This document shows, one piece after another, positions 56,712 through 58,893 of a stretch of DNA of 64,000 nt; the first letter of the stretch is position 1; every line of letters begins with the position of its first letter. The notes beneath the pieces are model-generated. The model ran no database searches. It was not told the DNA's origin and saw only the letters and a program-made list of their open reading frames with translations. The DNA comes from Maridesulfovibrio sp. (lineage in GTDB: Bacteria; Desulfobacterota; Desulfovibrionia; Desulfovibrionales; Desulfovibrionaceae), in the NCBI RefSeq assembly GCF_963676065.1, contig NZ_OY780933.1:930001-994000 (forward strand). Direction: 5' to 3'. A program made the translations under genes and the position numbers.

Positions 56712-56993
56712 ATGGCTGAATATACATACGAAAGTCTGGAAGCGTTGCTTAAAGAAAAGCTCGGCGATGCCATGCCGGAGCGGGCCTTGGAAGATATTCA
56801 CGAGGCCCTGAAGATCACCGAGAAGATGGAAGAAGAGGGCTGGAAATTCCAGCTTGAAGACCTAAGCCGGGGCAGCATGACCGAAACAGACTGGCGTGCG
56901 ACCCTCAAGAAAGACGGCAAGGAATTTTCCGGCCAGAGTGACCATGCCGCCTTGGCTGTTTGTGTTGCTGTGGCGGATGCGGTTGTGGGGTAG
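56712..56993 (+). CDS. Small hypothetical protein
   Basis: This 93-aa acidic protein has an N-terminal helical part and a C-terminal SDHAALAVCVAVADAVVG stretch, reminiscent of small phage-derived ABA-sandwich proteins; this is only a resemblance. GGAGG lies 7 nt before the ATG at 56712. It precedes the toxin-antitoxin module but shows normal base use. Confidence 0.6.
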   Translation: MAEYTYESLEALLKEKLGDAMPERALEDIHEALKITEKMEEEGWKFQLEDLSRGSMTETDWRATLKKDGKEFSGQSDHAALAVCVAVADAVVG

Positions 56994-57009
56994 AAAGCCA
57001 AAGTTCATA

Positions 57010-57056
57010 TTTTGGGAACTTTTGTTATTGACAAATTTTGGGAACTGTTTATTTTG
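57010..57056 (+). promoter_or_regulatory. Promoter and repeated operator of the higBA-like module
   Basis: TTGACA at 57029-57034 and TATTTT at 57051-57056 are 16 bp apart, a good sigma-70 type promoter. The 12-mer ATTTTGGGAACT occurs twice, at 57010-57021 and 57036-57047, flanking the -35 box. Such repeats are typical binding sites for an autoregulating antitoxin. Confidence 0.6.
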
Positions 57057-57080
57057 TGTTTAGGAGAAGTCAGGGAACCT

Positions 57081-57374
57081 ATGCGAATAATTAGTCGGGC
57101 TACTTTACGTGATTATGGAAAGAAGCATTCTGATGCAAAGGAGTCACTTGACTGCTGGTTTCATGAGGTCAACATTGCATCTTGGGATAGTTGGACAGAT
57201 ATTAAGTCAAGGTATCCAGATGTTTCCCCACTCGGAAACGATCGCTATGTTTTTAACATAAAAGGTAACAAGTATAGGATAATAACGGCTGTTCATTTCG
57301 AAAGTAAAATTGTTTTTATCCGTTTTGTAGGTACTCATGCCGAGTATGACAAAGTGGATGCAGAGAAGGTGTAA
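57081..57374 (+). CDS. higB: HigB-family mRNA interferase toxin
   Basis: This 97-aa protein of the HigB_toxin family has its typical order: MRIISRATLRDYGKKHSDAKESL, CWFHEV-IASW, FNIKGNKYRIITAVHF, FIRFVGTHAEYDKVDAE. Members cleave mRNA on translating ribosomes. The frame can be read upstream to 57012, but the family start is at the ATG at 57081. The antitoxin gene follows 2 bp later. The pair is AT-rich compared with its neighbours, which points to transfer. Confidence 0.9.
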   Translation: MRIISRATLRDYGKKHSDAKESLDCWFHEVNIASWDSWTDIKSRYPDVSPLGNDRYVFNIKGNKYRIITAVHFESKIVFIRFVGTHAEYDKVDAEKV

Positions 57375-57376
57375 AT

Positions 57377-58561
57377 ATGATGAAGTTAATTAAGACAGAA
57401 CAAGATCACAGGGAGGCCCTTGAGCAGATAGAAAGGCTCATGACAGCTGGCGATTCCCCTGATGTTTTGGATCAGCTTGAGCTTCTGGCGCACCTCGTTG
57501 AAAAGTATGAAGAAGAGCAGTTTCCAATTGATTTTCCAACTCCTGTTGAAGCCATCAAGTTTCGGATGGAACAGCAGGGCTTGAATCAGAGTGATTTAGT
57601 TAAATATATTGGAAGTAAAAGTAAGGTGTCCGAGGTCTTGAATAACAAAAGACCCCTAACGCTTGAAATGATGCGAAAGTTGAATAGGGGGTTGGGAATT
57701 TCACCTGAGGTTTTACTTCAGGAGCCAAAGGCTGAATTTCCAGATAGTTATTCTAGTTTAGAATGGAATCTTTTTCCTCTTAAAGAATTAGCAAAGAAAA
57801 GTATTATTGAAAGTAAAAATTGCACTGATAAGGCCGAGGAGTGTATTCGCGGTTTGCTGCAAGATGCTGGTTTACCTCCTCTGCTTAATTCTTGTCACCG
57901 GCAAAGTTCTTGGAACGGTAAGCCTGCTGATTGGTATGCAACTTTTGCATGGGAGTTGATTGTAAGGGCGAAAGCTAGAAAAATTGATCTGCCAGTTAAA
58001 TATGTTTCTGGAGCATTTAATGAAGAGCATATGGCAAGACTTGCTCACCTAAGTATCTATGACAATGGTCCTCTCCTAGCTCAGGAATACCTTGCTAAGC
58101 ATGGCATTGTATTAGTTATTGAAAGTGCTTTGAAAGGAACTTATTTGGATGGAATAGCGATGTTTCTAGATAAGGGAACACCTGTTGTCGGCCTTACTTT
58201 AAGACTTGATAGAATTGATTATTTTTGGTTCACGCTAATGCATGAACTTGCGCATATAGTAAAACATTTAGATAGCCATAACTCTTGTATTGTTGACTTT
58301 AGAGATAGTTGCTCAGCTCCTTCCGCTGATATTGAAACTGAAGCTAACCAAATTGCACGCAGTGTTTTGATTCCTGAAAATATGTGGTTGGGAAGTGAGG
58401 CAAAGCGTTATGGCAGTAAGGCTGGAGCGATTGCTCTTGCTCGTAAACTTGAAATTCATGAGGCTATTGTAGCTGGGAGAATCCGCAAGGAAAGAAATAA
58501 TTATCGCATTCTTCATCAGCTTGTAGGCAACAAAAAAGTTCGCAAGTTGTTTTTGGAATAA
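57377..58561 (+). CDS. HigA-type antitoxin fused to ImmA/IrrE metallopeptidase
   Basis: This 394-aa protein has an N-terminal HigA-like region with an XRE helix-turn-helix (about 55-115: IKFRMEQQGLNQSDLVKYIGSKSKVSEVLNNKRPLTLEMMRKL). Residues of about 205-330 form an ImmA/IrrE-type zinc peptidase with H289-E-L-A-H293 and a later E-T-A--IAR-style segment. HigA antitoxins of this toxin family are usually only about 110-130 aa, so the peptidase part is an added module. It could cleave the antitoxin or a repressor in response to stress. Codon use is AT-rich. Confidence 0.87.
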   Translation: MMKLIKTEQDHREALEQIERLMTAGDSPDVLDQLELLAHLVEKYEEEQFPIDFPTPVEAIKFRMEQQGLNQSDLVKYIGSKSKVSEVLNNKRPLTLEMMRKLNRGLGISPEVLLQEPKAEFPDSYSSLEWNLFPLKELAKKSIIESKNCTDKAEECIRGLLQDAGLPPLLNSCHRQSSWNGKPADWYATFAWELIVRAKARKIDLPVKYVSGAFNEEHMARLAHLSIYDNGPLLAQEYLAKHGIVLVIESALKGTYLDGIAMFLDKGTPVVGLTLRLDRIDYFWFTLMHELAHIVKHLDSHNSCIVDFRDSCSAPSADIETEANQIARSVLIPENMWLGSEAKRYGSKAGAIALARKLEIHEAIVAGRIRKERNNYRILHQLVGNKKVRKLFLE

Positions 58562-58563
58562 AA

Positions 58564-58597
58564 AAATCTCCTCTATGCGCCAACATAGAGGAGATTT
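58564..58597. terminator. Long perfect hairpin after the antitoxin gene
   Basis: A 14-bp perfect stem (58564-58577 with 58584-58597) has a 6-nt loop. The plus strand lacks a T run after it; the T run is on the minus strand side. It may act as a 3'-end hairpin for the higBA transcript. Confidence 0.6.
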
Positions 58598-58723
58598 CCC
58601 GAAATTCAAACCGTTAAGGCCGGATCGGGTTACCCTTGTACGGGTAGAGTAAATTAATCTACTTACTATCTATCCACTGAATCTTTCAGAGTCAAGGGCT
58701 GTGCCTTTAGAGGAGATCCTTCC

Positions 58724-58849
58724 ATGAAGAATCAAAACTCTAACGGAAAGGTTCTGATCTTCCGCTGGACACGTAGATGTCCGAAAACCGGTAAGATTAT
58801 TCGTGCAAAAAAGCGTCCTTTTCCTATCTGGGTAGATGCTGAGCATTAA
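58724..58849 (+). CDS. 41-aa basic protein
   Basis: This short ORF is MKNQNSNGKVLIFRWTRRC, then PKTGKIIRAKKRPFPIW and VDAEH. The protein is rich in Lys and Arg, with one cysteine, and could bind nucleic acid. AGGAGA lies about 8 nt before the ATG and a perfect terminator follows the stop by 8 bp, so a real gene is likely. The upstream 125 bp carries several small hairpins. No family is recognised. Confidence 0.7.
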   Translation: MKNQNSNGKVLIFRWTRRCPKTGKIIRAKKRPFPIWVDAEH

Positions 58850-58857
58850 TTTGAATT

Positions 58858-58883
58858 GCCCCGCTTTGCGGGGCTTCTTTTTT
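58858..58883 (+). terminator. Terminator after the 41-aa gene
   Basis: GCCCCGC pairs with GCGGGGC around a TTT loop, followed by TTCTTTTTT. Confidence 0.92.
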
Positions 58884-58893
58884 ACATTTCATC

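What the first reader, a model, noticed from the sequence alone, without database searches (positions are those of the whole stretch)
57081..58561. HigB toxin paired with an antitoxin fused to an ImmA/IrrE metallopeptidase
The antitoxin is 394 aa, about three times the usual size, with an XRE domain and a C-terminal HELAH zinc-peptidase site (H289, E290, H293). The module could have built-in proteolytic control of the antitoxin. Base use is AT-rich and unlike neighbours, so it was probably acquired.
Basis: partly seen in the sequence, partly recalled or inferred. Interest (0 to 1): 0.65.

Follow-up and report, generated by a model that had tools for sequence, protein, structure and literature searches.

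The report
Two-gene PD-lambda-2-like toxin-antitoxin operon
A bacterium carries a horizontally acquired toxin-antitoxin gene pair whose antitoxin also contains a protease; it belongs to an already described anti-phage family (PD-lambda-2) but lacks that system's third gene, so it is a tidy example of something known rather than something new.

Summary
A HigB toxin gene (57081-57374) is followed, 2 nt later, by a 394-aa protein (57377-58561) with a complete HigA-type part (residues 1-115) fused to an ImmA/IrrE (M78) peptidase (H289, E290, H293, probable third ligand E320). The idea is not new: Makarova et al. 2009 predicted such modules, and Vassallo et al. 2022 found one, PD-lambda-2, as an abortive anti-lambda system; both window proteins match its PADLOC models over full length. 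In that system the fusion protein alone was toxic and the HigB-like protein rescued it, so which partner is the toxin is not safe to assume. The window lacks gene C (Beta protein), which the E. coli system needs for defence, but 72 of 83 evaluable relatives also lack it. Details found here: all 89 full-length relatives keep HExxH; a GTTCCC-N5-GGGAAC operator around the -35 box is conserved across phyla; the insertion is absent from the same site in sister species; and between two sister species the HTH-sensor-peptidase core has apparently been swapped by recombination while the toxin and both ends of the fusion stayed. Function was not tested.

The parts
57003..57019 (+). Operator O1 GTTCATATTTTGGGAAC, an imperfect form of the family palindrome GTTCCC-N5-GGGAAC, just upstream of the -35 box
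   Evidence: the only exact match to GTTCN5TTGGGAAC in the genome
57028..57055 (+). Promoter: TTGACA (57028-57033), TATTTT (57050-57055), with a second operator half-site GGGAAC at 57040-57045 between them
   Evidence: consensus and conservation, no transcript data
57081..57374 (+). Gene A: HigB toxin-like protein, 97 aa (PD-Lambda-2_A)
   Evidence: PF09907 E 3e-30; PADLOC PDLC03979 E 3e-48 over 1-97/97
57377..58561 (+). Gene B: HigA HTH fused to ImmA/IrrE (M78) metallopeptidase, 394 aa (PD-Lambda-2_B)
   Evidence: PADLOC PDLC03982 E 3e-143 over 4-396/402; PF01381, PF06114; AlphaFold2 model pLDDT 88.9
57377..57721 (+). HigA part of B (residues 1-115): N-terminal toxin-binding region (1-56) and HTH (57-115)
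   Evidence: structure match to E. coli HigA 6kml_B, Z 9.1, 37% identity over 1-115; profile match 5ycl E 7e-15. Toxin-binding role of 1-56 is inferred
57722..58081 (+). Middle region of B (residues 116-235), least conserved; possible sensor
   Evidence: mean conservation 0.50 against 0.73 for the HTH; role inferred
58082..58561 (+). M78 peptidase part of B (residues 236-394)
   Evidence: PF06114; structure match to CapP 7t5t over residues 212-373, Z 8.5; Foldseek also lists PprI/IrrE 8sln and 3dte
58241..58255 (+). HELAH motif, residues 289-293
   Evidence: HExxH in 89/89 relatives
58334..58336 (+). E320, probable third metal ligand (ExxxN/D)
   Evidence: invariant in A3; aligns with the Glu of IEAQAD in CapP; ligand role inferred
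58564..58597 (.). Perfect 14-bp hairpin directly after the stop of B, possible transcript end
   Evidence: function inferred; not scored as a terminator on the + strand

Best explanation
A two-gene, PD-lambda-2-type toxin-antitoxin operon, probably an abortive anti-phage module. The HigA part of B binds HigB and, through its HTH, the GTTCCC-N5-GGGAAC operator that brackets the -35 box, so that the pair represses its own promoter in the resting cell. The M78 peptidase part is held inactive until a trigger (a phage product or DNA damage signal) acts on the middle/peptidase region. It then cuts B itself or a neighbouring B between the HTH and the rest, as ImmA, PprI and CapP cut their HTH repressors. 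This lifts repression and frees a translation-blocking toxin, stopping the infected cell. Shown here: gene order, domains, conserved peptidase site, conserved operator, acquisition, absence of C. Inferred from relatives: autorepression, repressor cutting, abortive defence. Not known: trigger, cut site, and which partner is toxic.
For: Full-length matches to PD-Lambda-2_A and _B, a tested abortive anti-lambda system (PMC9519451). Complete HigA fold 1-115 plus CapP/PprI-like peptidase fold. HExxH 89/89, E320 and H297 invariant in 54, so the peptidase is under strong constraint. Operator hexamers in 47 of 61 non-redundant C-less promoters against 4.3 expected from shuffles, spacer exactly 5 in all 51 palindromes found, placed mostly 13 nt either side of the TTGACA start. 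ImmA, PprI and CapP cleave HTH repressors, PprI and CapP in response to ssDNA (PMC10904395; PMC10440598).
Against: The defence phenotype of the E. coli system needs gene C, which is absent here and from the rest of this genome. B alone was toxic in E. coli and A rescued it, the reverse of a standard HigBA. No cleavage, binding or phage data exist for this two-gene form; no known trigger.
Confidence: 0.5

Rival explanations
1. Reversed roles: B is the toxic effector (its peptidase cuts a host protein, or its HTH misregulates) and the HigB-like A is its inhibitor or co-repressor.
For: In E. coli PD-lambda-2, B alone was toxic and A rescued it (PMC9519451). The peptidase site is kept in 89/89 relatives.
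Against: A belongs to a family of proven mRNA interferases (PF09907 E 3e-30; E. coli/Shigella HigB matches; PMC11980606). The first 115 residues of B are a complete HigA. B was tested in only one three-gene relative, by overexpression.
Confidence: 0.25
2. Ordinary HigBA addiction module in which the peptidase part is a passenger or a structural dimerisation domain and control is by host proteases such as Lon.
For: Short HigA without peptidase, paired with a close HigB relative, occurs in the same order (L020, L011) under a related palindrome GTCCC-N5-GGGAC. E. coli HigBA is controlled through Lon and autorepression (PMC2814082).
Against: Complete conservation of HExxH in 89 relatives from many phyla, and of E320 in 54, argues against a passenger.
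Confidence: 0.17
3. Regulatory switch without a toxin role: an ImmA/ImmR-like repressor-protease that controls other genes.
For: M78 proteins often work as antirepressors (PMC2701414).
Against: The exact operator occurs once in the genome, at its own promoter; HigB neighbour in 87/87 loci.
Confidence: 0.06

Closest known systems
PD-lambda-2 (Vassallo et al. 2022, PMC9519451)
   Same: Genes A (HigB-like) and B (HigA-HTH plus M78 peptidase), same order, full-length profile matches.
   Different: No gene C (Beta_protein PF14350), which the E. coli system needs for defence; C not found anywhere in the genome.
RelE plus COG2856-Xre modules predicted by Makarova et al. 2009 (PMC2701414)
   Same: RelE-family toxin gene next to an Xre-Zn-peptidase fusion; same proposed mechanism.
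   Different: A predicted class only; not resolved to this family.
RosmerTA (RmrT/RmrA; PMC10440598)
   Same: HTH-ImmA protein paired with a toxin, anti-phage.
   Different: RmrA models match only part of the peptidase region, best E 1e-6 over residues 239-336; different toxins.
E. coli HigBA (5ycl, 5ifg, 6kml)
   Same: HigB, HigA residues 1-115, toxin-first order; autorepression there is shown.
   Different: HigA is 138 aa with no peptidase.
CapP-CapH (CBASS) and PprI-DdrO
   Same: M78 peptidase fold (7t5t Z 8.5; PprI 8sln by Foldseek).
   Different: Peptidase and cleaved repressor are separate proteins, no HigB partner.

Membership tests
PD-lambda-2 anti-phage system | Gene A: HigB-like toxin, first in operon | tested here: met
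   PDLC03979 E 3e-48, 97/97 positions
PD-lambda-2 anti-phage system | Gene B: HigA-HTH fused to C-terminal ImmA/IrrE peptidase | tested here: met
   PDLC03982 E 3e-143, 4-396 of 402
PD-lambda-2 anti-phage system | Gene C (P4-antitoxin-related Beta protein), needed for defence in E. coli | tested here: not met
   PDLC03983 and PF14350 give no match in the genome; the same PDLC03983 search finds it in 11 of 50 other genomes. So this is a two-gene relative, not a complete PD-lambda-2 system
PD-lambda-2 anti-phage system | Abortive protection against phage; B toxic alone, rescued by A | not testable with these tools
   needs experiments
Type II HigBA toxin-antitoxin | HigB (PF09907) gene directly upstream of an HTH antitoxin gene | tested here: met
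Type II HigBA toxin-antitoxin | Autorepression through a palindromic operator at the promoter | tested here: inconclusive
   conserved palindrome present; binding not tested
Type II HigBA toxin-antitoxin | HigB toxic and neutralised by HigA | not testable with these tools
   needs experiments; reverse result reported for E. coli PD-lambda-2
M78 (ImmA/IrrE) metallopeptidase | HExxH plus a further Glu ligand, M78 fold | tested here: met
   PF06114 above cut-off; HExxH 89/89; E320 invariant and aligned with a CapP Glu, ligand role inferred; fold match CapP
RosmerTA (RmrA) | Full-length match to RmrA models | tested here: not met
   best E 1e-6, only residues 239-336

The most novel reading that the evidence does not exclude
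The two-gene form is the basic, self-contained version of the family: a single protein that is antitoxin, repressor, sensor and protease. Its HTH-sensor-peptidase core is exchanged between alleles by recombination under phage pressure while the toxin and the ends of B stay fixed; gene C is a later add-on in one or two lineages.
Probability: 0.25. Interest if true: 0.55.

Novelty: new member of a known kind. Interest (0 to 1): 0.33.

Why it matters
How M78 peptidases inside toxin-antitoxin modules are switched on and what they cut is still open. This two-gene form, with a clearly defined candidate operator and no third component, is a simpler test object than the three-gene E. coli system. The apparent core swap between sister species points to the region most likely to carry the sensing specificity.

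Tried and rejected
Search for gene C near the operon and in the whole genome: none. The small ORF behind B (58724-58849) as a third component: no Pfam match, no homologue in 16 sister genomes, absent from the otherwise equivalent sister locus, so not counted. RosmerTA membership: rejected, only partial match. Four loci that seemed to lack HigB: reading the frames showed HigB in all four. Positive selection as the sole cause of the divergent core of B: rejected because synonymous sites are also near saturation there. A single-sequence AlphaFold2 model of residues 116-394 was useless, pLDDT 35, so the middle region's fold was not tested on its own. An A-B complex could not be predicted with the tools. 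Literature searches for a mechanism paper on PD-lambda-2 after 2022 found none in the library; subscription papers and preprints are not covered.

Full report
Observation. Gene A, 57081-57374, encodes a 97-aa HigB toxin-family protein (PF09907, E 3e-30). Gene B starts 2 nt after A's stop, 57377-58561, 394 aa, with HTH_3 at 60-113 and Peptidase_M78 at 268-369. HELAH lies at 289-293. The pair has 39.8% GC against 49.1% for the window, among the lowest 0.24% of stretches of that length.

What it is. PADLOC's PD-Lambda-2_A (E 3e-48, 97/97 positions) and PD-Lambda-2_B (E 3e-143, 4-396 of 402) cover both proteins fully. PD-lambda-2 was isolated by Vassallo et al. 2022 (PMC9519451) as an abortive system against lambda-vir: HigB-like A, HigA-HTH-peptidase B, and C, related to a P4 phage antitoxin. 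There B alone was toxic, A rescued it, and C was required for defence. Makarova et al. 2009 (PMC2701414) had already listed RelE genes next to COG2856(Zn peptidase)-Xre fusions and proposed that the protease cuts the Xre antitoxin/repressor.

Anatomy of B. An AlphaFold2 model from 54 aligned relatives (mean pLDDT 88.9, pTM 0.79) has residues 1-115 matching complete E. coli HigA (6kml_B, Z 9.1, 37% identity) and residues 212-373 matching CapP (7t5t, Z 8.5), with PprI/IrrE (8sln, 3dte) in the Foldseek list. These Z values are moderate, but sequence profiles agree: HigA 5ycl E 7e-15, CapP E 0.003. In the CapP alignment E320 of B pairs with the Glu of IEAQAD; E320 is invariant in 54 relatives, so it is the likely third metal ligand (inference). 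The second Glu of the local ExEA, E322, is Gln in several relatives and is therefore a weaker candidate.

Conservation. Of 89 full-length sequences (the window's, 8 from the same genus or order, 80 from the public genome set), all keep HExxH. HigB lies directly upstream in 83 by automatic search and in four more when frames were read by eye, i.e. 87 of 87 with enough upstream DNA. The relatives span Thermodesulfobacteriota, Pseudomonadota, Cyanobacteriota, Chloroflexota, Acidobacteriota, Bacteroidota and others. In an even draw of 297 genomes of the phylum, 15 have a strong match, so the distribution is patchy.

Gene C. C (Beta_protein, PF14350) lies behind B in only 11 of 83 evaluable loci, clustered on the tree (two changes of state). 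The 80 public loci are those closest to the window's clade, so this proportion is biased towards window-like systems. C was not found in the window's genome by two models; the same PADLOC model found C in 11 of 50 other genomes, so the search works. In the window B is followed at once by a perfect 14-bp hairpin. The window operon is thus a two-gene relative, not a complete PD-lambda-2 system.

Operator. The window promoter has GTTCATATTTTGGGAAC upstream of TTGACA and GGGAAC again between the -35 and -10 boxes. Across relatives the same palindrome, GTTCCC-N5-GGGAAC, recurs at the same place: 47 of 61 non-redundant C-less promoters carry at least one hexamer (shuffled mean 4.3, maximum 11), 8 of 9 C-containing ones too; the spacer is 5 in all 51 palindromes found; half-sites start mostly 13 nt before and 13 nt after the start of TTGACA. 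The exact window form occurs once in the genome. HigBA pairs without peptidase from the same order have GTCCC-N5-GGGAC at their promoter, which suggests that the operator belongs to the HigA HTH rather than to the fusion. I found no description of this operator for the family, but the literature search was limited.

Acquisition. In sister genome G003 the upstream gene and the tkt terminator are about 30 nt apart with nothing between (L120). G015 (L123) also lacks the pair there. G002 has the pair at the same site (L002). Three further sister genomes have other DNA at this place (L118, L121, L122), so it looks like an insertion hotspot.

Mosaic between sisters. Comparing the window with G002: A and B residues 1-56 differ at 23-27% of synonymous sites, residues 341-394 at 36%, and flanking tkt is 91.7% identical in nucleotides; but residues 57-340 differ at 66-83% of synonymous sites, with 64-73% nucleotide identity. 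Near-saturated synonymous sites in the middle only, with conserved ends, are best explained by one of the two alleles having received a divergent core by recombination. This rests on a single pair of genomes; which allele is the recombinant is not known.

Mechanism. The best reading is a HigA-type antitoxin-repressor with its own regulated peptidase, cutting itself or its partner on a phage or damage signal (confidence 0.5). The main rival is that B is the toxic partner, as overexpression in E. coli suggests (0.25). A plain HigBA with a passenger peptidase is less likely given the complete conservation of the active site (0.17). None of the functional steps was tested here.

Verdict. A real, intact, acquired member of a known family, in a common two-gene form. 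Specialist interest is modest: the operator conservation, the C-less majority near this clade and the core swap are useful details rather than a new kind of system.

Noticed in passing
58724-58849: Orphan 41-aa ORF with an RBS-like AGGAG and a following GC-rich hairpin, in about 300 bp that the sister locus L002 lacks; no Pfam match and no homologue in 16 sister genomes.
   Followed up: partly
56994-58893: Insertion hotspot between a conserved small gene and the tkt terminator: empty in L120 (G003); other DNA in L118 (G016), L121 (G009), L122 (G007).
   Followed up: partly
57545-58396: HTH-middle-peptidase core of B (residues 57-340) apparently exchanged by recombination relative to sister genome G002, with toxin and both ends of B conserved.
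   Followed up: partly
56712-56993: Upstream conserved 93-aa protein matches Phage_ABA_S PF18066 just above cut-off; present in 13 of 17 genomes of the genus.
   Followed up: no
L020:1190-1881 and L011:1426-1875: Peptidase-free HigBA cousins of this pair in the same order, with palindrome GTCCC-N5-GGGAC at the promoter.
   Followed up: partly
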